Shown here piece after piece: positions 31,922-43,730 of a stretch of 64,000 nucleotides of DNA. The position numbers were made by a program, and so were the translations under genes. Below the pieces are notes generated by a model. The model was not told the origin of the DNA. It searched no databases and worked only from the letters and a program-made list of their open reading frames with translations. This DNA is from Neoroseomonas oryzicola (GTDB lineage Bacteria; Pseudomonadota; Alphaproteobacteria; Acetobacterales; Acetobacteraceae). The DNA is taken from NCBI RefSeq assembly GCF_012163135.1, contig NZ_JAAVUP010000011.1, positions 1 to 64,000 on the forward strand. The letters are read 5' to 3'. Each line of letters begins with the position of its first letter. Position 1 is the first letter of the stretch.

Positions 31922-33565
31922 ATGGACGGCGCCCTGGAAGCCATCGAGGCCGTGCGCTCGACGCGCGAGGCGGCGGCGCGCACGCGGCGCTGGCGCTTCG
32001 CGGAGTGGATGGGGCGCATCAGCACGCGCGCCGGCATCGTCAGCATCCTGTTCCTGCTCACCGTCGGCCTGCTGGCCGGCAACGCGGCCACCAACCTCGC
32101 CCGGCAATCCGCGATCGTCGAGGAACTGGGCGTGCGCGTGCGTCTCGCGGACGAGGCGGTCAGCACCTTCGCCGCCAGCGTCAATGCCTACGGCACCGCC
32201 TTCAACACCATGGCCGCCACGGCCGGCCAGCCCAACGCGGCGCCGCCGCGCATCGTCATGCAGGGCACCCAGCTCACCGCAGCCTTCCGCGAGGTCGAGA
32301 CCCTGTTCGGCGGCGAGATCGACAGCGTCGTGCTGGGCGGGGCGCGCGACATGAGCCGGAGGATCGGCGGCCTGTCCGAGCGCGCCCAGCAGGCCTTCTC
32401 CGCCCGGCGCCGCGCCGACCTCACGCCGCTGCAGGACGAATGGCTCGACATCCAGGTGGCCTTCAACCGCTTCGCCGATGCGGCGCGCGACGCCTCCCGC
32501 GCGCGGGCCGAGGCGAGCGTCGCGAGCGCGCGCCGGATCGCCGGCGACGCCCGCATCGTCACCATGCTCGGCACCGGCCTTGGCGTCTTCGCGGCGCTGC
32601 TGACGTGGTATGTCCTCGTCACCACCATCACCCGGCCGGTCGGCGCGCTGGCGCGGACCATGACCCAGGTCGCGCGCGGCGATGTCGCGACCGAGGTGCC
32701 TCTGACGGATCGCGAGGATCAACTCGGCCAGATGGCGCGCGCCGTCGTGATCTTCCGCGACAACCTCAACGTCACGCGCAGCCTCGCCGACCGCGCACTC
32801 GACGGCGCGCGGCAGACGGCGAGCTCGACCACCCAGGCCTCCCAGGCCATCGGGAGCATCTCGGACGGTGCCTCGAAGCAGCTGAGCGAGCTGCGCGCCT
32901 TCGCCGCCTCGCTGGCCGACAGCGCCGAGCAGATCCGCCTGGTCGGCCAGAACACCCAGGATGCCAGTGCGCGCGCGAGCGACGCGAAGACGCTGCTCAC
33001 CGACAGCGTGCACCGCATCCGCGACCTGGTGCAGATCGTCGAGGGCGTGGGCGACGACGCCGAGCGGGTGAACCGCATCGCCGCCTCGATCGCGCAGATG
33101 GCGACGCAGACCAACATCCTCGCGATCAACGCCGCCATCGAGGCCGCGCGCGCCGGCGAGCACGGCCGCGGCCTCGCGGTGGTGGCCGAGGAGGTGCGCC
33201 AGCTCGCCGCGAACACCGAGGGGCTGGCGACCGAGATCGCCGACCTCGTCCGCGGCGCCGGCCAGCGCACGCGCGAGGGCGGGGCGGCGGCGAAGAATGT
33301 CGGCGTCTCGGTCGACCGGCTCGAGGGGCTGGTGGCCGAGAGCGCGCGGCTGGCGAGCGACATCGCGACCGCCATGGACCAGCAGCAGGCGACCGTCCGG
33401 CAATTGGGAGAGCGCGTGAACACCTTGACCCTGATCGGCCAGTCCAGCGCGACGGCGGCCGAGCAATTGACCGGCACCATGGTCGAACTGTCCCGCCAGG
33501 CCGCCGATACGCGCGTGGCGGTCGAATCCGTCGCCGGCGGCGCGAAGCTGGGGCGCAATCTGTGA
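31922..33565 (+). CDS. Methyl-accepting chemotaxis-type receptor
   Basis: The 547-residue receptor has a first transmembrane helix at about residues 38-56 (AGIVSILFLLTVGLLAGNAA) and a helical periplasmic sensor to about 213. A second membrane helix (GTGLGVFAALLTWYVLV) leads into a HAMP domain starting TRPVGALARTM, followed by a cytoplasmic signalling domain. The hairpin tip TQTNILAINAAIEAARAGEH is well conserved, so it should bind CheA/CheW. AGGGAG precedes the ATG at 31922. The TGA overlaps the GTG of the receiver-phosphatase gene (GTGA), which ties the receptor to that output protein. No CheR or CheB esterase lies nearby. Confidence 0.92.
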   Translation: MDGALEAIEAVRSTREAAARTRRWRFAEWMGRISTRAGIVSILFLLTVGLLAGNAATNLARQSAIVEELGVRVRLADEAVSTFAASVNAYGTAFNTMAATAGQPNAAPPRIVMQGTQLTAAFREVETLFGGEIDSVVLGGARDMSRRIGGLSERAQQAFSARRRADLTPLQDEWLDIQVAFNRFADAARDASRARAEASVASARRIAGDARIVTMLGTGLGVFAALLTWYVLVTTITRPVGALARTMTQVARGDVATEVPLTDREDQLGQMARAVVIFRDNLNVTRSLADRALDGARQTASSTTQASQAIGSISDGASKQLSELRAFAASLADSAEQIRLVGQNTQDASARASDAKTLLTDSVHRIRDLVQIVEGVGDDAERVNRIAASIAQMATQTNILAINAAIEAARAGEHGRGLAVVAEEVRQLAANTEGLATEIADLVRGAGQRTREGGAAAKNVGVSVDRLEGLVAESARLASDIATAMDQQQATVRQLGERVNTLTLIGQSSATAAEQLTGTMVELSRQAADTRVAVESVAGGAKLGRNL

Positions 33566-34743
33566 CCGCACCGGTCGTGCCGCCCGTCGCGGCCTCCATC
33601 CTCGTGGTCGACGACAGCGCCTTCAACCGGCTGCTGCTCACGCGCCGCCTCGCCGAGCTCGGCTACCACGACGTCGCGCTGGCCGAGGACGGGCAGCAGG
33701 GGCTCGAGGCGATCGCCGCGCGCGCCTTCGATGCCGTGCTGCTCGACATCGAGATGCCGGGCCTCGACGGCATCGGCGTGCTCGACCGGCTGCGCGCGCT
33801 GGGCACCGAGGCACCGCCGGTGATCGTCATCTCCGCGTTGACCGAGATGACGGCGATCGTCCGCTGCATCGAGCTTGGCGCCGAGGATTTCCTGCCCAAG
33901 AACTTCGACCCGACGCTGCTGCGCGCGCGGCTGTCGACGGTGCTCGAGAAGAAGCGGCTGCGGGACCTCGCCGCACAGCGCCTCGCGGCGCTGGAGGCGG
34001 AGCTCGAGAGCGCGCGCTCGGCGCAGGTCTCGCTCGTGCCGCACGATTTCGCGGCGATCATCGCGGGCGACCGGATCGACGTCTATGCGGCGATGATCCC
34101 GGCGCGGCAGGTCGGCGGCGACCTGTACGACGCGGTGCGGCTGAACGAGCGGACGGTGCTGTTCGCGGTCGGCGACGTCTCGGGCAAGGGGGCGCCGGCG
34201 GCGCTGACCATGGCGCGCAGCATGGGCCTCGTGCGCGCATCGGCGCGGCTCTGCGCGGAGCGGCATTGCCCGCCCGATCCGGGTGAGCTGCTGACCATCG
34301 CCAATGACGACCTCGCCCGCGACAACGAGGACATGACCTTCGTGACGGTCGCCCTCGGCGTCATCGACCTCGAGACCGGGGAGGGCGCGATCGCCATCGC
34401 CGCGCATGACGCGCCCTTCCTGCTGCGCGACGACGCCCCGCCGCGCGATTTCGGTCCCTTCGGGCGCCAGCCGCCGCTCGGCGCGCGCGAAGGCACCGTC
34501 TATCGCAGCGAGCCCTTCCGCCTGGCGCCTGGGGAGGCGCTGCTGGTCTTCTCCGACGGGGTGACGGAAGCCGAGAACGCGGCGGGAGAGGCGCTGGAGC
34601 GGGAGGGGCTGCAGCGCGCGCTGGCAGGCCTCGGGGCCGATCCGCGCAAGGTGGTGGATGGCGTGCTCGCCGCGGCGGCCACCTTCGCGGACGGCACGCC
34701 GCAATCGGACGACATCACGGCGCTGGCGATCCGGATGCGCTGA
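33562..34743 (+). CDS. Receiver-PP2C (RsbU/SpoIIE-type) protein phosphatase
   Basis: The 393-residue protein joins a response-regulator receiver (residues 13-130, VVDDSAFNRLL, phospho-accepting Asp62 in LLDIEMPGLDG, Lys in FLPKNFDP) by a coiled coil to a SpoIIE-like PP2C domain. The metal-binding residues appear in ARQVGGDLYDAV, VGDVSGKGAPAAL, FSDGVTEAENA and QSDDITALAI. Such proteins dephosphorylate STAS-domain anti-anti-sigma factors. It starts with GTG overlapping the chemoreceptor stop. A STAS protein and RsbW-like kinase at 42.3-43.1 kb are the natural partners; that link is inferred. Confidence 0.9.
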   Translation: MTAPVVPPVAASILVVDDSAFNRLLLTRRLAELGYHDVALAEDGQQGLEAIAARAFDAVLLDIEMPGLDGIGVLDRLRALGTEAPPVIVISALTEMTAIVRCIELGAEDFLPKNFDPTLLRARLSTVLEKKRLRDLAAQRLAALEAELESARSAQVSLVPHDFAAIIAGDRIDVYAAMIPARQVGGDLYDAVRLNERTVLFAVGDVSGKGAPAALTMARSMGLVRASARLCAERHCPPDPGELLTIANDDLARDNEDMTFVTVALGVIDLETGEGAIAIAAHDAPFLLRDDAPPRDFGPFGRQPPLGAREGTVYRSEPFRLAPGEALLVFSDGVTEAENAAGEALEREGLQRALAGLGADPRKVVDGVLAAAATFADGTPQSDDITALAIRMR

Positions 34744-34788
34744 CGCGCAAGCCGCCTGAGGCGACGGCGTCGCCGCTGCGCCGGAGGG

Positions 34789-34830
34789 CGCTTCATCCTC
34801 CGCGCCGCCCGCGCGATGAAGCGGCCCCTT
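34789..34830. terminator. Possible terminator hairpin
   Basis: CGCTTCATC pairs with GATGAAGCG around a 17-base loop and is followed by GCCCCTT. It lies between the convergent receiver-phosphatase and DUF1254 genes. The loop is long and the T-tract poor. Confidence 0.3.
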
Positions 34831-34857
34831 CGACGGATCGCTCGCAGGACTGCGGCG

Positions 34858-36402
34858 TCAGCCCTGCGGTTCGATGTCGCCTGGCTTCCAGCTCTGGTCG
34901 AACCAGGGCTGCAGCGGGCCGTAGAGCCGCAGGATCATGAACCACGACTTGCCCGGGATGGTCTGCACCCAGTTGCTCTCGCGTCCCGCCGGCGCGGTCG
35001 GGCCGAACCAGATGTCGACCGAGCCGTCGGCGTTCTTCTGCACGGCCGGATTCTGGCTGGTGACCGAGGGGAAGCGGTTGTCGGTCTGCAGCATCGACCG
35101 GGTCTGGGTGTCGTAGACGATGGTGGACCAGAAGGTGCGCACCGGCACCGGGCCCGGCAGGTGCAGGCGGTAGGTCTTGCCGCCGTCGAAGGCGTTGCCG
35201 TTCGAATCCTCGGCCGTCCAGGGATAGGTCGAGCCCTCGCCCACGATCTTCGTGTCCATCGCCGGCGTCACGCCGGTGGCGAGGAAGAAGAAGAAGGCGC
35301 GCGCATCGAGGTTGCCGACGCCGGGCTGATGCTGGAACAGGTAGCCGCCCTGGAAGGCGTAGCGCCAGCGCCGGTCGCTGAAGATGCGCGCTTCCGGATC
35401 GCGCGCCCGGTAGGCCAGCGCGCGGGCCGTCGCATCGCCGGCGACCGCGGCCTCCGTCAGGATGCGGCGCATCCGCGCGTCGGGCTGGAAGGGCTTGCCC
35501 TTCTGGATGCCGATGGAGGCGAAGAAGCCGAGCGTGACGGGGTCCGACGCGCTGCTCGGTTCCACCTGCACCACGTCGTTCAGCATTTCCCAGAAGCGGA
35601 AGTCGGACGGGCCGACCATGTTGAAGGGTCGCTCGGACATGTCGACGAAGGTCAGGCGCGGCGGGTTGGACGCGCGGGACAGCGGATAGATCTTCGTGCG
35701 GCGCTTCACCGACTCGATGGCGGGGCGGAAGTCGCCGTTCACGGGGAAGCTGCGCCACGCGAACCAGTTCTGGAAGGTCTTCGGGCGGACCACTGTGTAG
35801 CCCTCCGGCACCGCCCCGCGATGGCCCGGCGGCAGCAGCAGGTACTTGCCGCCGCGGCCGCGATCCGCGCCGGTGATGCCGACATCGGCCACCCAGGAAT
35901 AGAACATGTCGTTGATCAGGCCGAGCACGCCCGGCGGCACCTCGACCACCAGCGGGCCGTTGCGGAGGTCCACCCAGAACCAGGTGTAGGGCGTGTTGTC
36001 GTTGGCGGTCAGTTCGACCGTGCGGCTGTCCACCCGCCCTTCCCAAATCGGCACCGTGGCGTTGACCGGGCCGACGCTGAGGACGGCGTTTCGGTTCGCC
36101 GCCTGGTTCACCGCGGGCAGGGCGAGCAGGTAGGCCTGCAGGGCGCGCTGCCGGTCGAGGTTGTCGTAGATCAGCCGCGTACTGTCGGCATCCGGCACGC
36201 CGTCGAAGAAGTTCAGCCGGCCGAAGCCCGTCTCGACCGTGGCGGGCATGACGACGCCGGAGGGCATCGGCGTGGTGTAACGGAAGACCGGGGGCGTCGG
36301 GGTGCCGGTGAGCGGCTGGGCCTCCGCCGGGGCTGGGCCGAAGGCGCCGCGCAAGGCCGATGCTGCTGCCGCGAGCACGGCGAGTTCACGTCGTGTGGTC
36401 AT
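34858..36402 (-). CDS. Exported DUF1254/DUF1214 protein
   Basis: The 514-residue protein has an N-terminal signal with an RR pair (MTTRRELAVLAAAASALRGA) and then the DUF1254 and DUF1214 domains seen in a widespread family of unknown function. Typical stretches are VGPVNATVPIWEGR, NDNTPYTWFWVDLRNGPLVV, PVPVRTFWSTIVYDTQTRSM and, near the end, NWVQTIPGKSWFMILRLYGPL. Periplasmic location is likely. It is divergent from an AraC-type regulator gene with about 230 bases between them, which may hold a shared control region. Confidence 0.88.
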   Translation of the reverse strand: MTTRRELAVLAAAASALRGAFGPAPAEAQPLTGTPTPPVFRYTTPMPSGVVMPATVETGFGRLNFFDGVPDADSTRLIYDNLDRQRALQAYLLALPAVNQAANRNAVLSVGPVNATVPIWEGRVDSRTVELTANDNTPYTWFWVDLRNGPLVVEVPPGVLGLINDMFYSWVADVGITGADRGRGGKYLLLPPGHRGAVPEGYTVVRPKTFQNWFAWRSFPVNGDFRPAIESVKRRTKIYPLSRASNPPRLTFVDMSERPFNMVGPSDFRFWEMLNDVVQVEPSSASDPVTLGFFASIGIQKGKPFQPDARMRRILTEAAVAGDATARALAYRARDPEARIFSDRRWRYAFQGGYLFQHQPGVGNLDARAFFFFLATGVTPAMDTKIVGEGSTYPWTAEDSNGNAFDGGKTYRLHLPGPVPVRTFWSTIVYDTQTRSMLQTDNRFPSVTSQNPAVQKNADGSVDIWFGPTAPAGRESNWVQTIPGKSWFMILRLYGPLQPWFDQSWKPGDIEPQG

Positions 36403-36633
36403 GAAGGTCGAACCTCTCCGGATGCTTGGGCAGCGTTCACCTTATCGGGAAAAGACCATGGCAGGCCCGGAGGACCGCCGTTCCGCATCGATCTCATCGC
36501 CGTACCGGTCGAACCGTCATCGCCGCTCGGGGCAAGCGTATCGCGATTCGACCTGCGGCATGGGTTGAATCGCTAGCCGGATTCGGAACACCCTCCGCTT
36601 CTGCGGGCGCCACGCACCGAGGAGATCCGCCGC

Positions 36634-37587
36634 TTGGAGTGCATCGCCCCCGCCACCTGGTCGGCAGAGCTGGACCGGATCGAGCCCCTGGCCGAGGCGC
36701 AGCGCGATTTCCAGGCGGACATGGTCCAGCTCTCGCCGGGTCGGTTCCGCTACGGGCTGCGGCTGGTCGATCTCGGGCCGCTGCGGGTCCAGTCGAACGA
36801 CCTCGATGGCAGCTATCTCGGGCGGGCGCGGGTGCCGCCTGGCACCTGGGCACTGTTCTTTCCGACCGGCGGGCCGGAGGAGGCGAGCCGCCTCAACGGC
36901 ATGGTGCCGGGCAGGGCCGACGCCGTCCTGTACGGGCCGCACGCCGAGCTCCATGCCAGGGTTTCGGACGGGCAGCGCTGGACGATGGCCGTGTTCGACG
37001 ACGGCCGCTTTCGCGAGATCTTCGATCGCATTCCCGCGGCCTGCGAACGGCGCGCGGTCCATCTGCCCGGGTTGCTCGCCCGGGCGCCCGGGCTGCTTCG
37101 CCTCGAGGAGGTCCACGGCGCCGTCGCGGGGGGCGCGGCCGGCGCCGCGGTGTCGGAGGGCGTGGTCGACGGCCTGTGCGCGGCACTCGACGGCGCGTTC
37201 ACCGCCGGCGCGTCATCGGCCCGGCGGGTGCGCGCCGAGGGGCGCGCCGTCCGTGTCGCCTCGGCCGCGGTGGCGTATCTCGAAGCCGCACGGGGCCGGG
37301 CTGTCTTCAGCCATGAGATCGGCGCTGCGATCGGCGTGAGCCCCCGCTTCGTCAATCAGTGTTTCGACGCGGTCTTCGGGATGAGCGTGCACCGTTACCT
37401 CCGGCTGAGGCGCCTCGCCGAGGCGCGCCGGCGGCTGATGGCCGGGGGGGATGGCTTGCTGGTGAAGCAGGTCGCGCTCGACCTCGGCCTGTGGCACTTC
37501 GGCCGCTTCGCCAGCGCCTACCAGGCACAGTTCGGCGAGACGCCCTCCCAGACGCTGGCCGCCGGTGGGCGCCGGCCGCATCGGTAG
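36634..37587 (+). CDS. AraC family transcriptional regulator
   Basis: The 317-residue protein has an N-terminal sensing domain of about 200 residues and a C-terminal AraC DNA-binding domain. That domain has two helix-turn-helices, seen around FSHEIGAAIGVSPRFVNQCF and VKQVALDLGLWHFGRFASAY, and ends with the GETPSQTL motif. A TTG at 36634 is used because GAGGAG lies eight bases upstream and no ATG fits. It is divergent from the DUF1254 gene and may regulate it. Confidence 0.85.
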   Translation: MECIAPATWSAELDRIEPLAEAQRDFQADMVQLSPGRFRYGLRLVDLGPLRVQSNDLDGSYLGRARVPPGTWALFFPTGGPEEASRLNGMVPGRADAVLYGPHAELHARVSDGQRWTMAVFDDGRFREIFDRIPAACERRAVHLPGLLARAPGLLRLEEVHGAVAGGAAGAAVSEGVVDGLCAALDGAFTAGASSARRVRAEGRAVRVASAAVAYLEAARGRAVFSHEIGAAIGVSPRFVNQCFDAVFGMSVHRYLRLRRLAEARRRLMAGGDGLLVKQVALDLGLWHFGRFASAYQAQFGETPSQTLAAGGRRPHR

Positions 37588-37690
37588 CGGCCGCCGGCCG
37601 CGATGCGGGAGCGGATGACGCAGCACGCCCTCGCGCCGGCGGTGCATGTCGATCCGGTCGCATGAAGGCCCAGCCTTCGTGCTCCTGCAC

Positions 37691-40309
37691 TCAGGCGGGC
37701 ACCAGCCCGTCGGGTTCCAGAACCACCACCGGTTCCCCGGTGCCGAGCACGCCGACGCCGCCCACGCCGGGCAGGGCGGCGAGCGTCGGGTGCAGCGGCC
37801 GCAGCAGCAGGTCGACGCGCCGGCTGACCCGGCCGACCGACAGGCCGATCCGCCGTCCGCCTGCCCCGCGCAGCAGCAGGATGCCGCCCGGTTCGCCCGG
37901 CACCGGCAGGCCGAGCGCGGCTTCCAGCGAGACGACCGGCGGCAGTTCCCCCGCGCTGCCGAGGGTGCCGGTGTGCAGCACCGCCTCGACGCGCGCGACG
38001 GGCAGGGCGTAGGGGTGGCCGCCGGCCTCGACCAGCAGCACCGGCGCCATGGCGGCCGAGAGCGGCAGGTCGAGCACGAATTCCGTTCCCGCGCCCGGGC
38101 GGCTCGACACCGTCACCGATCCGCCGGCGCGGTGGACCGCGTCCTCAACCACGTCGAGGCCGACGCCGCGGCCCGAGGTCGCGCTGACGCGGTCCTTCGT
38201 CGAGAAGCCGGGACGGAACAGCAGGCGGTGCACGCCGGTCTCGTCGAGGCGCGCGGCCTCGGCGCCGCCCACCACGCCACGGGCGACGGCGGCGCGGCGC
38301 ACCGCCTCGGTGTCGATGCCCGCGCCGTCGTCGGCGACGGTGACGCGCACGCGGTCCGCGCCATGGCGTTCGGCGGCGATGCGCAGGCGCGCGCGCGGCA
38401 CCTTGCCGGCGGCGCTGCGCTGCGCGGGCGGTTCGACGCCGTGGTCCACGGCGTTGCGCACGAGGTGCTGCAGCGGGTCGGCGAGGATCTCGATCAGGCC
38501 GCGGTCGATGCTGACCTCGCCGCCGGCGAGCTCGACCTCGATCTCCTTGCCGGCGGCCTCGGCCACCGCGCGGGCGATGCGCGGCATGCGGCCGAACAGG
38601 GCGGCGAGCGGCGTGACGCGCAGCTCCATCATCGCTTCGTTCAGCCGGCGCAGCGCGATGGTCAGGCGGTCGGCGGTGCCCTGCACCTCCTGCATGGTGG
38701 CGCTGACGCGGTCGGCGAGCGCGGCGGCCTCGGCGGCGCGTCCGGGCGGCAGGTCGCGCGTCAGGCTGGCGATGCGGGTGGCGAGGCCGCGGACCTCGCT
38801 GCGGCCGGCGACATCGGCGAGGGAGAGGCCGGCGGCGCGCACCTCGGCCTCGAGGGCGATGATGCCGTCCACGGTTTCCTGCCGCAGGCGCAGCGTGCCG
38901 CCGGCGGCGGGCGTGGCGGGCTCGCCGGCGGGCGCGGCGCCAAGCGGCGTCAGCGCGGCGACCAGCGTGCCCGAGGGATCGATGGCGGCACGGCTCGCCT
39001 CGAAGGCGCGGGCATCGGCGGGGCCGGCGAGGAGCAGTTCCAGCACCGGCGGGTCGCTGCCGGGCAGCAGGCGGCTGGCCAGCGCCTCGGCGCCCTGGGC
39101 GGTGAGCCATTCGATCAGCGCGGCCTCGCGCTCGACCGTCGCGAGGTGGCCGAGGCGGGCGCGGTAGAGGCCCCGCCCGGACGCGACCGCTGCGGCGGCG
39201 CGCTCGGCGCCCTCGGGGCCCAGTGTCGCGGCGAAGTCCGGCGGGATGCCGGGGGCGGCGACCGGTGCGGTGGGTTCCTCGGCCTGGGTGCGCAGGGCGG
39301 CGAGGCCGCCGGTCGCGACCGCGCGCAACCGGCCGGCGATCAGCGCGCGGCGGGCGGTGACGGCCGCGGCGGCGTCGGGTTCGGCGAGGCGGTCCCAGAG
39401 ATCCTCGACCGTGAGCAGCAGGTCCTCGAGCGGCGCCTCGCCGATCGCCGCGGCGATGCGCGCGGCCTCCCGCGCCGCCGCGACGCAGGCGGCGGGGTCG
39501 GGGCCGTCCACCAACTCGGCGAGGGTTCCGACGCGTGCCGGGAGCCCGGCCTGGCCCGCGGTCTCGGCCAATGCCTGCTGAAGCGCCGCCGCGCCGGCAT
39601 CCTGGCCGGTCAGCGCCGAGAGCGCCGCGAGCCCGCGGCACAGATCCCCGAAGGCGGGCAATGCGGCGGGACCGGCGCGGCCCGGCAGCGCGCCGAGCGT
39701 CGCCGCGACGCGCCCCGCCCCCGCGGCGCGGGCGAGCGCGGCGAGCTCGGTGGCGAGCGTCGTCGCCTCGTGCGACCCGCCCGCCGCGAGCGGGGCGAGT
39801 TTCATCGCGACCTTGGCCGAGACCTCGGCCAGCACGGCGAAATGCCGCGCGGCCTGCGTCGCGGCCGGGGGCGCCGCGGCGGGTTGTGGCGCCGGTGCGG
39901 GTGGCGGCGCGGCGGCGGGCGGCGGGGCGGCCACCGCCGTGCCGTCCGCGACGGCGCCGAGCCGCGCGAGCAGCGCCGCCGGGGCCGGGATGTCGCAGTT
40001 CTCCCCCACCAGCCCGGCGCGCTGGCGGCGCATGGTGTCGACGGCGGCGACCAGCGCGTCCGCCGCCTCCCCGGCGATCGCCGCACGGCCCTGGCGCGCC
40101 AGGCCGAGGATGTCCTCGCAGCGATGCGCCACCGCCATCATGCCCGCGCCGCCCAGCGCGCCGCTCATGCCCTTCAATGAGTGGAAGGCGCGGAAGAGGG
40201 AATCGATCGCTGCGCGATCGGCGACGCCGGCGGCGAGCAGCGTCTCGATGGTGTCGAGGTGTTCCTCGCTCTCGGCGGCGAAGTGGTCGCGCAGGTCGTC
40301 GTCGATCAC
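37691..40309 (-). CDS. cheA: CheA-type chemotaxis histidine kinase
   Basis: The 872-residue kinase has an N-terminal HPt domain (His43 in FRAFHSLKGMSGALGGAGMM), a long Ala-rich middle with little conservation that may include a degenerate second HPt, the dimerisation helices, and a HATPase domain. The HATPase boxes are HLVRNAVDHGVE (N), VTVADDGAGID (G1), FRPGFSTK (F) and GRGVGLDVV (G2). A CheW-like domain follows from about residue 740. A GTG start overlaps the stop of the receiver gene (GTGA). It is the last gene of the STAS/RsbW/CheW/receiver/CheA cluster. No flagellar or CheY gene is nearby, so a non-motility output is likely. Confidence 0.9.
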   Translation of the reverse strand: MIDDDLRDHFAAESEEHLDTIETLLAAGVADRAAIDSLFRAFHSLKGMSGALGGAGMMAVAHRCEDILGLARQGRAAIAGEAADALVAAVDTMRRQRAGLVGENCDIPAPAALLARLGAVADGTAVAAPPPAAAPPPAPAPQPAAAPPAATQAARHFAVLAEVSAKVAMKLAPLAAGGSHEATTLATELAALARAAGAGRVAATLGALPGRAGPAALPAFGDLCRGLAALSALTGQDAGAAALQQALAETAGQAGLPARVGTLAELVDGPDPAACVAAAREAARIAAAIGEAPLEDLLLTVEDLWDRLAEPDAAAAVTARRALIAGRLRAVATGGLAALRTQAEEPTAPVAAPGIPPDFAATLGPEGAERAAAAVASGRGLYRARLGHLATVEREAALIEWLTAQGAEALASRLLPGSDPPVLELLLAGPADARAFEASRAAIDPSGTLVAALTPLGAAPAGEPATPAAGGTLRLRQETVDGIIALEAEVRAAGLSLADVAGRSEVRGLATRIASLTRDLPPGRAAEAAALADRVSATMQEVQGTADRLTIALRRLNEAMMELRVTPLAALFGRMPRIARAVAEAAGKEIEVELAGGEVSIDRGLIEILADPLQHLVRNAVDHGVEPPAQRSAAGKVPRARLRIAAERHGADRVRVTVADDGAGIDTEAVRRAAVARGVVGGAEAARLDETGVHRLLFRPGFSTKDRVSATSGRGVGLDVVEDAVHRAGGSVTVSSRPGAGTEFVLDLPLSAAMAPVLLVEAGGHPYALPVARVEAVLHTGTLGSAGELPPVVSLEAALGLPVPGEPGGILLLRGAGGRRIGLSVGRVSRRVDLLLRPLHPTLAALPGVGGVGVLGTGEPVVVLEPDGLVPA

Positions 40310-41004
40310 GGCGCGGCATCCTGCGGAAGTCCGGCGGCGCGGCGCGCGGCCGAGATCAGCGCCGCGCCCCGCCGTTCCGCCATGTCGGCCGACAGCGCGC
40401 CGGATGGCTTGCCGGTGACGCCCGCGGCGCCGAGCCGCCGGACCTCCCGCGCCAGCGCCGATCCCGGCGGCGTGGCGGAGGAGACGACGAGCACCGCGCC
40501 GCGTCCTTCCAGCGCCCAGTGGCGCAGCATCGTCACGCCATCCATGCCGGGCATCTCGATGTCGAGCAGCACGAGGTCCGGCGCCGCCTCGGCGCAGCGG
40601 GCGATCGCCTCGGCGCCGTCGGCGGCCTCGGCCACAACCTCGAAGGCGGGGTCGGCGGCGAGGATCTGGCGCAGCAGGCGGCGCATGGTGGGGGAATCGT
40701 CGACCACCAGCGTGCGCACCCGCGCGGCGGGCGGGGGCGCGGGCGGTGCGAGGGCGGCGTCGAGCGCCCCACCCATCGCCGCTGCCGCCGCGTGCAGCGC
40801 ATCGGCGTCCCCGGCCGCGACCGCTTCCGCCGCCGTGTCGAGCGGAGGCAGCAGCGCGGAGATCCCCACCGCCTCGACCATGGCGCGCAGGTTGGCGATG
40901 ACCCGTCCCGCCGCCGGCAGGTCCGTGGCGGCGGCGAGGCGCGCCGCGCCGGCGCGGTATTCCTCGGCGAAGGCGGCGACCAGGTCGGGATCGGGCGCGG
41001 TCAT
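40306..41004 (-). CDS. Receiver-domain response regulator with CheB-like receiver, no esterase domain
   Basis: The 232-residue protein has an N-terminal helical segment of about 90 residues (possibly HPt-like), a Pro-rich linker and a receiver domain. The receiver has the DD pair at 102-103 and phospho-accepting Asp148 (LVLLDIEMPGMDG). The receiver and the following VVSSATPPGSALAREV resemble CheB, yet the methylesterase domain is absent. It is overlapped on both sides, with CheW-like (ATGA) and CheA (GTGA), so it is presumably a direct phosphotransfer partner or phosphate sink of this CheA. Confidence 0.82.
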   Translation of the reverse strand: MTAPDPDLVAAFAEEYRAGAARLAAATDLPAAGRVIANLRAMVEAVGISALLPPLDTAAEAVAAGDADALHAAAAAMGGALDAALAPPAPPPAARVRTLVVDDSPTMRRLLRQILAADPAFEVVAEAADGAEAIARCAEAAPDLVLLDIEMPGMDGVTMLRHWALEGRGAVLVVSSATPPGSALAREVRRLGAAGVTGKPSGALSADMAERRGAALISAARRAAGLPQDAAP

Positions 41005-42161
41005 GCGGGCAGGGCCGACGCTCGGCAGATGCGGATGCCCATGCCGTCGAGCGGTGCGAGGCCCGAGACGAGCGCGTCGTCGGCGACCGCTTCGATCAGC
41101 GCCGCGGGCAGGGCGCGCAGGCCGAGCACGCGCTCGACCGGCACCACGACCGGGCGTGCGAGCGCGAGGCGCAGCAGCGGCGCCTGGGCGAGGGCCGCTG
41201 CGGCGAGCGGCGCGGCGAGGCGCGGGTCGAGGTCGTGCACCGGCAGCACCTCCCCCCGATGGGAGACGACGCCGCGCAGGGAGGGCACGGGCGCGGGCGC
41301 CGGGGCCGGGCGCAGCGGGGCGAGGACGGTCGCGATCTCGGCCGCCGCTACGGCGAAGCGGGTGCCGCCGGCCTCGCACAGCAGCAGGCGCGCGACCTCG
41401 CGGCCCGCTTCGGGGGCGGCGGCGGGCAGCGCGTGCGGCGCGGCGTCGAGCAGCGCGCGGCCGTCCGGGGTCTCGCGCAGCCGTTCCTCCAGCACGGGGC
41501 CTTCCATGCCAGGCGCGGCGCGGCCGATCGGCATGGCGAGCAGGCGGCCGTCGATGCGCAGCAGCGCCACCAGCCCCGAGGCCATCCCCGTGCCGAGCCT
41601 GCCCCCTGTGCACCAGGCGGGATCGAGGACGAGGACGCGCCTTCCGGCGACCTCATGGATGCCGAAGGCGCCTGGCAGGCCCGGGGGTGCGGCCGGGTCC
41701 ATGCCGGGCCGCAGCGAGCCCATCCCTTCCAGCGCCGCGAGCGGCACCGAGACCGACCCGGTTCCGTGGGTCAGCAGGTAGTGGTCACGGCTGCGCGGCG
41801 CGGCGAGCGGCACGGCCGCGGGCAAGGGCGGGATCGCGAGCGGCACCGGCGCCGGCATGGGCAGGGGCGCGACATCCGGCAGGTCGAGCGGCACGGCATC
41901 GGGCGTCGGTTCGGCCACCGCGTCGCCGCCGCAGATCACGGCGCCGCCGTCCCGTTCCACCACCACCCAGGCGGAGGGGAAGGGGGTCAGCGCCCAGACC
42001 ATCGCGCCGCGCCGCTCGACCATGGCGAGGCCCAGCAATCCCGGCGGCGCACCGGGCAGCGGCCGCGGCGCCGGCGGTGCCTCGAGCCGGCGGGAGCGGG
42101 CCGGCAGCAGGTAGCAGCGCATCCCGGCGCGCAACGCCAAGGCCTCGGCTTCCGCGGTCAT
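41001..42161 (-). CDS. CheW-like domain protein
   Basis: The 386-residue protein contains CheW-like beta-domains. The clearest is at the C terminus (ARLLLCEAGGTRFAVAAAEI, then SLRGVVSHRGEVLPVHDLDP). A second, weaker one lies around residues 125-215 (RDHYLLTHGTGSVSVPLAAL, FGIHEVAGRRVLVLDP), and a first degenerate segment may be present at the N terminus. The tandem arrangement would allow it to scaffold several receptors or kinases. It is coupled to the receiver gene by ATGA. Confidence 0.78.
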   Translation of the reverse strand: MTAEAEALALRAGMRCYLLPARSRRLEAPPAPRPLPGAPPGLLGLAMVERRGAMVWALTPFPSAWVVVERDGGAVICGGDAVAEPTPDAVPLDLPDVAPLPMPAPVPLAIPPLPAAVPLAAPRSRDHYLLTHGTGSVSVPLAALEGMGSLRPGMDPAAPPGLPGAFGIHEVAGRRVLVLDPAWCTGGRLGTGMASGLVALLRIDGRLLAMPIGRAAPGMEGPVLEERLRETPDGRALLDAAPHALPAAAPEAGREVARLLLCEAGGTRFAVAAAEIATVLAPLRPAPAPAPVPSLRGVVSHRGEVLPVHDLDPRLAAPLAAAALAQAPLLRLALARPVVVPVERVLGLRALPAALIEAVADDALVSGLAPLDGMGIRICRASALPA

Positions 42162-42274
42162 GCGGAAGACCCCCTGGCCTTGCGTGTTCCGGCAGCACTC
42201 CCCCGCACCGCGCGCCCCGCCCGTATCGCGAACCCCAGGCTAGGCCGATCCCGACCCGCAATGCCACCGGCGCG

Positions 42275-42712
42275 TCAGAGGAGGACCATCCGCAGGCGGT
42301 TGCGGCCCTCGGGCAGACGCTGATAGGCGAGCTCGCGGGTCAGGCGCCGCATCAGCACGAGGCCAAGCCCGCCGGGTTCGGCATCCGCCAGGCTGAGCGG
42401 GCGTTCCTTCAATTCGCCGGCGGTGGGGTCGAAGGCGCGGCCGGTATCCTCGAAGACCAGGATGCAACGGTCGGGCCCGGCCTCGGCGAGCAGCTCGACC
42501 TCGGCCGTCGCCGCGTCCTCGGCGCCGTGCATGGCGACGTTCATCACCACTTCCTCGACGAGGAGCTCGGCGCGGTCGGCGATGCCGCCGGGCAATCCCC
42601 GCGCGTCGAGGAAGGCGCGCAGCCGCGGCTGTGCCTCCGCAAGGCCTGACGAGGAGGCATGGATGGCCAGGCGGATCGCGCCCGCCTCTTCCGGATCGGT
42701 GGCCAACGGCAC
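42275..42712 (-). CDS. RsbW-like anti-sigma serine kinase / HATPase domain protein
   Basis: The 145-residue protein is a stand-alone GHKL ATPase of the RsbW/SpoIIAB type. It shows the N box ELLVEEVVMNVAMHGAED, the G1-like VFEDTGRAFDPT and a G2 motif PGGLGLVLMRRL. Such proteins phosphorylate STAS antagonists and may bind a sigma factor or another target. A GTG start with GGGAGG seven bases upstream is used. It is 16 bases downstream of the STAS gene, the standard partner order. Confidence 0.88.
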   Translation of the reverse strand: MPLATDPEEAGAIRLAIHASSSGLAEAQPRLRAFLDARGLPGGIADRAELLVEEVVMNVAMHGAEDAATAEVELLAEAGPDRCILVFEDTGRAFDPTAGELKERPLSLADAEPGGLGLVLMRRLTRELAYQRLPEGRNRLRMVLL

Positions 42713-42728
42713 CGCCCGGCCTCCCGCC

Positions 42729-43070
42729 TCAGGTCGCGGTCAGCGACAGCGCCTCGGCCTCGTCGGTCGCGATCGGGATCAGCGTGCCGAGGGCGACGGT
42801 CTCGAAGACCGTCATGACCGAAGGCTGAGGGTTCAGGATCACGGCCTTGCGGCCGCGCCGGTGCAGCGTGCGCGCGACCGTGAGCAGCAGCCGGATGCCG
42901 AGCGAGCTGACGAAGGGCACGGCGGCGAGGTCGACCACCGCGTGGCGGTCGGCCGGGGCGAGGCTCGCGGTGAAGCGCAACTCGATCTCGCCGGTGCCGG
43001 CGGCATCGAGGCGCCCGTCGAGGACCACCCGGTTCACCCCCGGCGCCATTTCCTGAATATCCATCTTCAT
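42729..43070 (-). CDS. STAS domain anti-anti-sigma factor-like protein
   Basis: The 113-residue protein is a single STAS domain with DLAAVPFVSSLGIRLLL, where Ser55/Ser56 is the expected phosphorylation site. It would be phosphorylated by the RsbW-like kinase encoded just downstream and dephosphorylated by a PP2C such as the receiver-phosphatase at 33.6 kb. That pairing is an inference from family knowledge. Confidence 0.88.
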   Translation of the reverse strand: MKMDIQEMAPGVNRVVLDGRLDAAGTGEIELRFTASLAPADRHAVVDLAAVPFVSSLGIRLLLTVARTLHRRGRKAVILNPQPSVMTVFETVALGTLIPIATDEAEALSLTAT

Positions 43071-43226
43071 CGCGCCATCATCCCTTCCGACCACCGCCAG
43101 GACGGTGGGCCACGCCCCTCGCCCGGCAGTCTCGTTGACGACGGTGTGATAAGGGAAGAGGGCCGTTCCCGACATGTGACAATTCCATGTCGAATGGCCG
43201 GCGCGGGCGGCGCCGGCCCCGCGGGG

Positions 43227-43730
43227 TCAGGCTTCGCCGACGCAGTCCAGCATGGAGGCGGCCAGCGCCTCGGCCGGCGCCTTGCCGCCCCAGAGGACGA
43301 ACTGGAAGGCGGGAAAGAAGCGCTCGCACTCGGTGATGGCGATGTCGACCATGTCCTCGAGGCTCTCGGCCGAGGCCGAGGGCGAGCCGCGCAGCAGGAC
43401 CGAGTGGCGGAACACCGGGACGCCGTCCTCGGCCTCGATGCCGAAATGGCCGATCCAGAGGCGATCATTCGCCAGCGCCAGGAGCTCGTAGAGCTTCTCC
43501 CGCCGGTCGGCCGGCACCTTCAGGTCGAAGGCGCAGGTGAAGGCCATGGCGCTGATCTCGTGCGACCAGGAGAAGTGCAGGCCGTAGTCGCACCACTTGC
43601 CCGGCGCCTCGGCCGCCATCTCCCCGTCCGAACGGCGCTCGAAGGCCCATTCATTGGCGGCGATGATCTGTTCGAGGATGTCGAGGGGGTTCGAAGCACG
43701 GTCGCGGTCCAACTGGAGAGAGGCGGACAT
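43227..43730 (-). CDS. YbjN domain protein
   Basis: The 167-residue cytoplasmic protein matches the YbjN family, whose fold resembles type III secretion chaperones. Recognisable parts are NEWAFERRSDGEMAAE, LHFSWSHEISAMAFTCAFDL and ECERFFPAFQFVLWGGKAPAE. A strong AAGGAGG precedes the ATG at 43730. It is about 150 bases upstream of the STAS gene on the same strand; whether it belongs to that system is unclear, since YbjN genes also occur elsewhere as stress-related genes. Confidence 0.85.
   Translation of the reverse strand: MSASLQLDRDRASNPLDILEQIIAANEWAFERRSDGEMAAEAPGKWCDYGLHFSWSHEISAMAFTCAFDLKVPADRREKLYELLALANDRLWIGHFGIEAEDGVPVFRHSVLLRGSPSASAESLEDMVDIAITECERFFPAFQFVLWGGKAPAEALAASMLDCVGEA

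What the first reader, a model, noticed from the sequence alone, without database searches (positions are those of the whole stretch)
31922..43730. Split chemosensory / partner-switching signalling system
A chemoreceptor is fused by a GTGA overlap to a receiver-PP2C phosphatase. Seven kilobases away (counted from the end of the phosphatase gene to the STAS/RsbW genes) a single cluster encodes YbjN, STAS, RsbW-like kinase, a tandem CheW-like protein, a receiver protein and CheA. Family knowledge: CheA phosphorylates receivers, PP2C enzymes dephosphorylate STAS proteins and RsbW kinases rephosphorylate them. Inference: stimulus to receptor, to CheA, to receiver-PP2C, to STAS, releasing or capturing a target of the RsbW-like kinase. 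There are no CheR, CheB-esterase, CheY or flagellar genes, so output is probably gene expression, surface behaviour or development rather than swimming.
Basis: partly seen in the sequence, partly recalled or inferred. Interest (0 to 1): 0.75.

Follow-up and report, generated by a model that had tools for sequence, protein, structure and literature searches.

The report
Chemoreceptor system driving a protein switch
A bacterium appears to use chemotaxis-type sensing parts, best known for steering swimming, to control a protein-partner switch of the kind that often controls gene activity, and in the related genomes examined that carry it the two halves occur together.

Summary
The genes are as described. 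A chemoreceptor gene overlaps a receiver-PP2C phosphatase gene (GTGA); 3-8 kb away lie STAS, RsbW-type kinase, CheW-like, receiver and CheA genes. They form one system: CheA and receiver-PP2C orthologues occur in exactly the same 25 of 299 Acetobacteraceae genomes, with the receptor in all 25. Two genomes have the parts in one co-oriented run; in eight the halves lie on different contigs, in at least five of these far apart. The 'split' is a 2.9-kb insertion absent from Neoroseomonas marina.

Corrections: YbjN is a bystander. The genome has FliM and a classical che cluster elsewhere. Relatives carry CheR and CheB in this operon; the window's genus lacks them there, and its receptor signalling domain has diverged most.

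Likely mechanism: receptor-CheA phosphorylates receiver-PP2C, which dephosphorylates STAS, which captures RsbW and frees an unknown target. No phosphotransfer is shown. The principle is in print (Shewanella Che1-CrsR-CrsA-RpoS), so this is a new variant of a known kind.

The parts
31922..33565 (+). MCP chemoreceptor (HAMP + signalling domain; 547 aa)
   Evidence: Pfam MCPsignal 2e-26, HAMP; residues 319-533 match 4-218 of E. coli Tsr 1qu7, equal lengths; present in 25 of 25 system-bearing genomes
33562..34743 (+). Receiver-PP2C phosphatase (response regulator with SpoIIE-type Ser phosphatase), GTGA overlap with the MCP gene
   Evidence: Pfam Response_reg + SpoIIE; phospho-Asp and four PP2C Asp positions conserved 25 of 25; overlap
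34745..37690 (.). Inserted segment, not part of the system: DUF1254/DUF1214 protein (34858-36402, -) and AraC-type regulator (36634-37587, +)
   Evidence: Pfam; absent in N. marina; no match to either gene in the other loci scanned
37691..40309 (-). CheA kinase (HPt, ATPase, CheW domains; 872 aa)
   Evidence: Pfam; HPt His43 in 20 of 20 covered rows (5 gaps), N and G boxes 25 of 25
40306..41004 (-). CheB-type receiver protein with an N-terminal four-helix domain resembling an HPt without its histidine; no esterase domain
41001..42161 (-). CheW-like coupling protein (one Pfam CheW domain, C-terminal; N-terminal half unassigned)
42275..42712 (-). RsbW-type Ser kinase (HATPase_c_2)
   Evidence: Pfam 6e-18; N-box Asn in 19 of 19 covered rows
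42729..43175 (-). STAS (RsbV-type) protein; likely real start near 43064
   Evidence: Pfam STAS 3e-13; second Ser of the VSS motif conserved 18 of 18; start from alignment of orthologues
43227..43730 (-). YbjN: neighbour, not part of the system
   Evidence: next to proC without the system in L080 and L081; present in 7 of 7 genomes of the genus tested, 2 with and 5 without the system

Best explanation
One integrated chemosensory system with a partner-switch output. The receptor, with the CheW-like protein, controls autophosphorylation of CheA on its HPt histidine. CheA passes phosphate to the receiver of the receiver-PP2C, and also to the CheB-type receiver protein, which may serve as a sink or brake. 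Phosphorylation activates the PP2C, which removes phosphate from the STAS serine. Unphosphorylated STAS binds the RsbW-type kinase and so releases, or blocks, an unidentified RsbW target encoded elsewhere. Shown here: gene content, intact catalytic residues, strict co-occurrence, correlated inheritance, and co-oriented gene runs in relatives. Inferred: every phosphotransfer step, the sign of the PP2C control, and the target. In the window's genus the methylation enzymes of the operon are missing (inferred loss), so the array probably adapts poorly or depends on the CheR/CheB of the C7 cluster.
For: CheA and receiver-PP2C orthologues (E<=1e-100) in the identical 25 of 299 family genomes, neither in the other 274 at that level; last CheA orthologue 9.7e-101, next match 1.1e-70; last PP2C orthologue 9.0e-122, next 7.5e-88. 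MCP in 25 of 25. Presence and absence are mixed within at least six genera among listed rows (g1, g4, g17, g25, g73, g96). L022 and L018 have MCP-RsbW-STAS-CheW-CheB-REC-CheA-PP2C all on one strand. In 8 of 25 the halves are on different contigs but both are kept, PP2C directly after MCP; in at least five of these (G011, G141, G225, G239, G262) contig lengths put them tens of kb apart or more. Distance matrices of CheA and PP2C correlate r 0.92, and 0.90 in the 8 genomes with halves on different contigs; both trees group the window genus with G107/G269 and not with their congener G239, consistent with joint transfer. STAS lies with the system in 22 of 25. Active-site residues intact.
Against: No direct evidence of phosphotransfer. 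Two genomes of genus g96 (G231, G262) have RsbW but no STAS in the cluster; a third (G195) is cut by a contig end. G005 has STAS but no RsbW match in the 20 kb fetched. No sigma factor or other candidate target is conserved in the neighbourhood in three or more genera. The genome searches scored only the five or six best first-look candidates per genome. The tree correlation has no species-tree control, and the MCP tree does not recover the G000/G104 + G107/G269 grouping. The Pfam CheA dimerisation domain was not detected in this CheA at E<=1. Three of the eight 'different contig' genomes (G072, G257, G284) sit on short contigs, so assembly breaks are possible there.
Confidence: 0.72

Rival explanations
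1. The STAS protein works like rhizobial CheS: it binds CheA and redirects phosphate between the two receiver proteins, and RsbW merely tunes STAS. There is no downstream partner-switch target.
For: CheS is a STAS-only protein in alphaproteobacterial che clusters that binds CheA (PMC12654446, passages read); no RsbW target is conserved nearby; the system has two receiver proteins.
Against: The passages read on CheS name no RsbW kinase or PP2C; here RsbW, a phosphorylatable Ser (18 of 18) and a PP2C are kept.
Confidence: 0.12
2. The system feeds into flagellar behaviour: it shares receptors or phosphate with the classical C7 chemotaxis cluster, and PP2C/STAS is a side branch.
For: The genome has only three MCPs, FliM and a classical che cluster; 23 of the 25 system-bearing genomes have a FliM match.
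Against: No stand-alone CheY was found among the genes of the cluster; two system-bearing genomes (G248, G278) gave no FliM match. The pairing of this CheA with the PP2C is exact, whereas CheA matches in general are widespread (214 of 299 genomes at E<=1e-40).
Confidence: 0.1
3. The receiver-PP2C answers to another histidine kinase, as its distant relatives may, and its linkage to CheA is incidental.
For: Distant receiver-PP2C relatives lie with RsbW, STAS and other receiver-bearing proteins rather than a match to this CheA (L049-L054, L059, L060); those neighbours were not identified further.
Against: For orthologues the CheA association is exact, 25 of 25 versus 0 of 274, and includes unlinked cases.
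Confidence: 0.04

Closest known systems
Shewanella oneidensis Che1 - CrsR/CrsA - RpoS (PMC9855816: abstract, introduction, section 3.1 and passages; PMC7666153: passages; CrsR domains from PMC6482189 passages)
   Same: Chemosensory operon with receptors, CheA, CheW, CheR, CheB plus a receiver-PP2C-kinase regulator and a STAS antagonist; a 36-heptad receptor; a second system does chemotaxis
   Different: There receiver, PP2C and kinase are one protein (CrsR), a CheD is encoded and the target is RpoS; here PP2C and kinase are separate proteins, the target is unknown, an HPt-like CheB-type receiver protein is present, and CheR/CheB are missing in this genus. CheD was not searched for here. PMC9855816 says Che1 'could be' and 'probably' is involved in RpoS control; PMC7666153 states it outright, citing a paper I could not read.
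F7 stage 1 and 2 chemosensory clusters of gammaproteobacteria (PMC7184735: section 10 and passages)
   Same: STAS antagonists and a serine phosphatase inside a chemosensory gene cluster whose function the authors call unclear
   Different: No RsbW or receiver-PP2C is named in what I read; other gene order; class membership not tested here
Bacillus cereus RsbK-RsbM-RsbY-RsbV/RsbW (PMC4574943, passages)
   Same: Receiver-PP2C (RsbY) switched by a histidine kinase that is methylated; drives RsbV/RsbW
   Different: Hybrid histidine kinase instead of receptor-CheA; target sigma B
Pseudomonas aeruginosa HptB - HsbR - HsbA (PMC6482189, passages)
   Same: Phosphorelay onto a receiver-PP2C-kinase controlling a STAS protein
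   Different: HPt protein and hybrid kinases upstream; single-chain regulator; c-di-GMP and RpoS/FlgM outputs
Rhizobial CheS (PMC12654446, passages)
   Same: STAS-only protein encoded in a che cluster of alphaproteobacteria
   Different: Acts on CheA-CheY; no RsbW or PP2C mentioned in the passages
Campylobacterota PP2C/STAS-kinase pathways (PMC9239204, passages)
   Same: Predicted wiring among a receiver-PP2C-kinase, a STAS protein and a chemoreceptor
   Different: Proposed to act on a receptor, with an unknown histidine kinase upstream; here the receptor and CheA are upstream

Membership tests
Chemosensory (Che) system | Receptor signalling domain, CheA with HPt His and ATPase, CheW-like protein | tested here: met
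   Pfam; residues conserved
Chemosensory (Che) system | CheR and CheB in the same cluster | tested here: not met
   Absent from the window cluster and from G104; among the 25, CheB in 18 (5 of 7 misses at contig ends) and CheR with the system in 20, plus G195 at another contig's end
Partner-switching system (RsbU/RsbV/RsbW type) | PP2C phosphatase with metal-binding aspartates | tested here: met
   four Asp positions 25 of 25; that these are the metal ligands is recalled
Partner-switching system (RsbU/RsbV/RsbW type) | HATPase_c_2 Ser kinase with N box | tested here: met
   Pfam; Asn 19 of 19 covered rows
Partner-switching system (RsbU/RsbV/RsbW type) | STAS protein with phosphorylatable Ser | tested here: met
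   18 of 18; which Ser is the acceptor rests on a recalled comparison with RsbV/SpoIIAA
Partner-switching system (RsbU/RsbV/RsbW type) | Sigma factor or other target of the kinase | tested here: inconclusive
   no conserved candidate nearby
CrsR/HsbR regulators | receiver, PP2C and kinase in one polypeptide | tested here: not met
   Pfam finds only receiver and SpoIIE in the PP2C protein; the kinase is a separate gene
F7 chemosensory class | CheA/CheB/CheR phylogeny within F7 | not tested
   no named class references were compared; only receptor length agrees with the Tsr (36H) type
ACF (alternative cellular function) class | CheA/B/R phylogenetic class and multidomain response regulators | tested here: inconclusive
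   multidomain receiver-PP2C present, as reported for ACF-type clusters in PMC3447774 (passages); phylogenetic class not tested

The most novel reading that the evidence does not exclude
In the window's genus a chemosensory array has lost its own adaptation enzymes and become a non-adapting on/off switch of a partner-switching pathway: a chemotaxis machine converted into a steady-state transcriptional or stress switch, with a CheB receiver recycled onto an HPt-like domain that lacks its histidine as a phosphate brake.
Probability: 0.3. Interest if true: 0.7.

Novelty: new variant of a known kind. Interest (0 to 1): 0.5.

Why it matters
In PMC9855816 the link from Shewanella Che1 to the CrsR partner switch is argued from gene order; I found no phosphotransfer data in what I could read (the primary papers were not held). 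This family gives a strong genomic case (identical presence in 25 of 299 genomes, kept together even when unlinked) and small, separate proteins for the test. It also offers natural variants with and without CheR/CheB, so the role of adaptation in such an output can be studied.

Tried and rejected
Considered and rejected: YbjN as a component. 'Split' as an intrinsic trait. Absence of flagella or of a classical chemotaxis cluster. Receiver-PP2C belonging to another kinase.

Led nowhere: structure of the CheW-like protein (pLDDT 46), so the tandem claim is open. Pfam on the receiver protein's N-terminal domain found nothing at E<=1; its HPt likeness rests on helices in a model and a weak hhalign (E 4e-4, probability 34%; four controls E 0.008 to 0.31), and the PDB comparison covered only the receiver. 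A strict, recalled methylation-site consensus matched none of 25 receptors, so the ATAAEE-to-ATAAEQ change in G000/G104 and ATAAGE in G269 is only suggestive. Neighbourhood clustering gave no target. Plasmid searches found one distant receiver-PP2C (Aureimonas, 43%) and no CheA. Class-wide search: 77 of 385 alphaproteobacterial genomes had some receiver-PP2C match at E<=1e-45; 11 loci, mostly from the top of the list (G481, sixth, not taken), were inspected and none had a match to this CheA profile within the 12-20 kb fetched.

Rows dropped or odd: L007-L016 were used for maps but not counted among the 25 (several are the same genomes under names). L009 and L014 were left out of the maps. L012, whose receiver frame is broken, was left out of the alignments. 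In one search the receiver rows of G239, G231 and G262 were skipped by the motif filter; repeats of the last two were added through search patterns. In one search the G284 receptor is partial.
Full report
What is there. Ten genes of the region were checked with Pfam. The MCP gene (31922-33565, +) overlaps the receiver-PP2C gene (33562-34743, +) by GTGA. On the other strand lie CheA (37691-40309), a receiver protein, a CheW-like protein, an RsbW-type kinase and a STAS protein; CheW/receiver and receiver/CheA overlap by ATGA and GTGA. YbjN follows. The window lies on contig C3 of a 5.3-Mb genome, close to Neoroseomonas marina (CheA 96% identical).

The halves belong together. A search of 299 Acetobacteraceae genomes with the receiver-PP2C and with the C-terminal 472 residues of CheA gave orthologues at E<=1e-100 in exactly the same 25 genomes and in none of the other 274 (five or six candidates were scored per genome). 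The gaps to the next tier are wide (CheA 9.7e-101 to 1.1e-70; PP2C 9.0e-122 to 7.5e-88). Genomes are not independent, but presence and absence are mixed within at least six genera among the rows listed. Maps of the fetched loci show the usual layout RsbW-STAS-CheR-CheW-CheB-receiver-CheA converging on receiver-PP2C preceded by the MCP. L022 and L018 have MCP-RsbW-STAS-CheW-CheB-receiver-CheA-PP2C on one strand in one run. In 8 of 25 genomes the halves are on different contigs, with the MCP still directly before the PP2C gene. In five (G011, G141, G225, G239, G262) the contig lengths put them far apart; in G072, G257 and G284 the contigs are short and a break in assembly is possible.

They seem to move together. 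CheA and PP2C distance matrices correlate at 0.92 (0 of 2000 permutations as high), and at 0.90 among the 8 genomes with halves on different contigs. Both trees join the window genus (G000, G104) with G107 and G269 (support 98/97 and 89/89) while G239, of the same genus as the last two, lies elsewhere. No species-tree control was run, but that shared departure from genus labels is consistent with joint transfer. The MCP tree does not recover this grouping; the window-genus receptors sit on a long branch.

The 'split' is secondary. Window and N. marina DNA match up to 34744 and again from 37691; in N. marina 8 bp lie between the two blocks. The 2,946 bp in the window carry a DUF1254/DUF1214 gene and an AraC-type gene, neither of which matched anything in the other loci scanned. 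The whole locus lies between proC (Pfam P5CR_dimer) and ybjN. In two congeners lacking the system (G203, G267) proC and ybjN are direct neighbours; in three others (G160, G237, G292) ybjN is present without proC in the 12 kb fetched. In all five, ybjN keeps its BMFP (UbiK-type) and rfaD neighbours, so ybjN is best read as a bystander.

Genome context. G000 has three MCPs, three SpoIIE phosphatases and two CheA matches at E<=1e-40. Contig C7 carries CheR, CheB, a CheY-like receiver, CheW and a hybrid CheA, with a protein matching Pfam HPTransfase beside them, and FliM is on C1. Of the 25 system-bearing genomes 23 had a FliM match; G248 and G278 had none. Further partner-switch clusters lie on C23 and C12.

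Adaptation. In relatives CheR and full CheB are part of this operon (Pfam). CheB was found in 18 of 25 (five of the seven misses are at contig ends). CheR lies with the system in 20 of 25: 15 in fetched clusters and five beside the matching STAS on another contig, plus G195 at the end of another contig. The two window-genus genomes lack both; G107 and G269 lack CheR. That this is loss is inferred from their nested place in the CheA tree (midpoint root). In these four genomes the receptor signalling domain is more diverged relative to the PP2C (ratios 1.02, 1.02, 0.84, 0.85) than in any of the 21 others (0.61-0.82); they form one group in two trees, so this may be a single event. A strict methylation consensus matched no receptor.

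Partner-switch parts. STAS lies with the system in 22 of 25: in 17 fetched clusters, and in five genomes (G072, G175, G209, G257, G284) beside the matching CheR on another contig. In genus g96, G231 and G262 have RsbW in the cluster but no STAS there; G195 is cut by a contig end. RsbW was seen in 19 of 25 (in G209 only as a divergent pair beside the receptor); five misses are at contig ends, but G005 has STAS without a visible RsbW. In a STAS profile search, matches at E<=1e-36, a cut-off chosen afterwards, occur in 25 of 25 system genomes and 1 of 12 system-free genomes; at E<=1e-15, 25 of 25 and 3 of 12. Phospho-acceptors and catalytic residues checked are intact.

Comparison with what is known. 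In Shewanella oneidensis the che1 operon encodes CrsR and CrsA, a partner switch on RpoS (PMC9855816: abstract, introduction, section 3.1 and passages; PMC7666153: passages). F7 stage 1 clusters hold STAS proteins and a serine phosphatase (PMC7184735: passages and section 10). Receiver-phosphatase regulators are reported in CheR-TPR clusters assigned to the ACF type (PMC3447774: passages). HsbR (PMC6482189: passages), RsbY (PMC4574943: passages), CheS (PMC12654446: passages) and Campylobacterota pathways (PMC9239204: passages) are related in parts. A review notes STAS-only proteins in motility or chemotaxis operons (PMC8256260: passage). Borrelia CheA1 affects RpoS stability, but no anti-sigma factor is known there (PMC10703414: passages). 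PMC7647112 (passages) added nothing on Che. Ten literature searches showed no paper on this Acetobacteraceae system among the rows listed, judged by title and start of abstract; some lists were capped (for instance 15 of 96), most subscription journals are not held, and the two Shewanella papers looked up by id were not held.

Verdict. A real, single, conserved chemosensory-to-partner-switch system; a new variant of a known kind. The phosphotransfer chain and the target are inference.

Noticed in passing
L019:6474-7931 and L025:6272-7594: The HPt-like N-terminal domain of the receiver protein occurs three times in tandem before a single receiver in genus g96, where STAS is missing from the cluster.
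   Followed up: partly
window 34745-37690: 2,946-bp segment with DUF1254/DUF1214 and AraC-type genes between two converging genes; by profile-match ends, other loci have from about 10 bp to about 2 kb at this junction.
   Followed up: yes
L055 and L056 (own genome, contigs C23 and C12): Two further partner-switch clusters with RsbW, STAS and SpoIIE phosphatase; the C23 phosphatase matches the receiver-PP2C end to end at 37%.
   Followed up: partly
L006 (own genome, contig C7): Classical che cluster with a hybrid CheA (two CheW stretches and a receiver) and, beside it, a protein matching Pfam HPTransfase.
   Followed up: partly
L061:8860-14437 and L062:5756-11256: In another alphaproteobacterial family, STAS, receiver-PP2C and RsbW sit next to a gene with a weak receptor match and no CheA match nearby: possibly a second link between receptors and partner switches.
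   Followed up: no
L028:3987-5310: G209 has a divergent RsbW pair and STAS upstream of the receptor, besides the usual STAS-CheR on another contig.
   Followed up: no
L046:2032-11080: In G072 the PP2C-MCP pair lies about 6 kb from ybjN, the gene that flanks the locus in the window, although the CheA half is on another contig.
   Followed up: no
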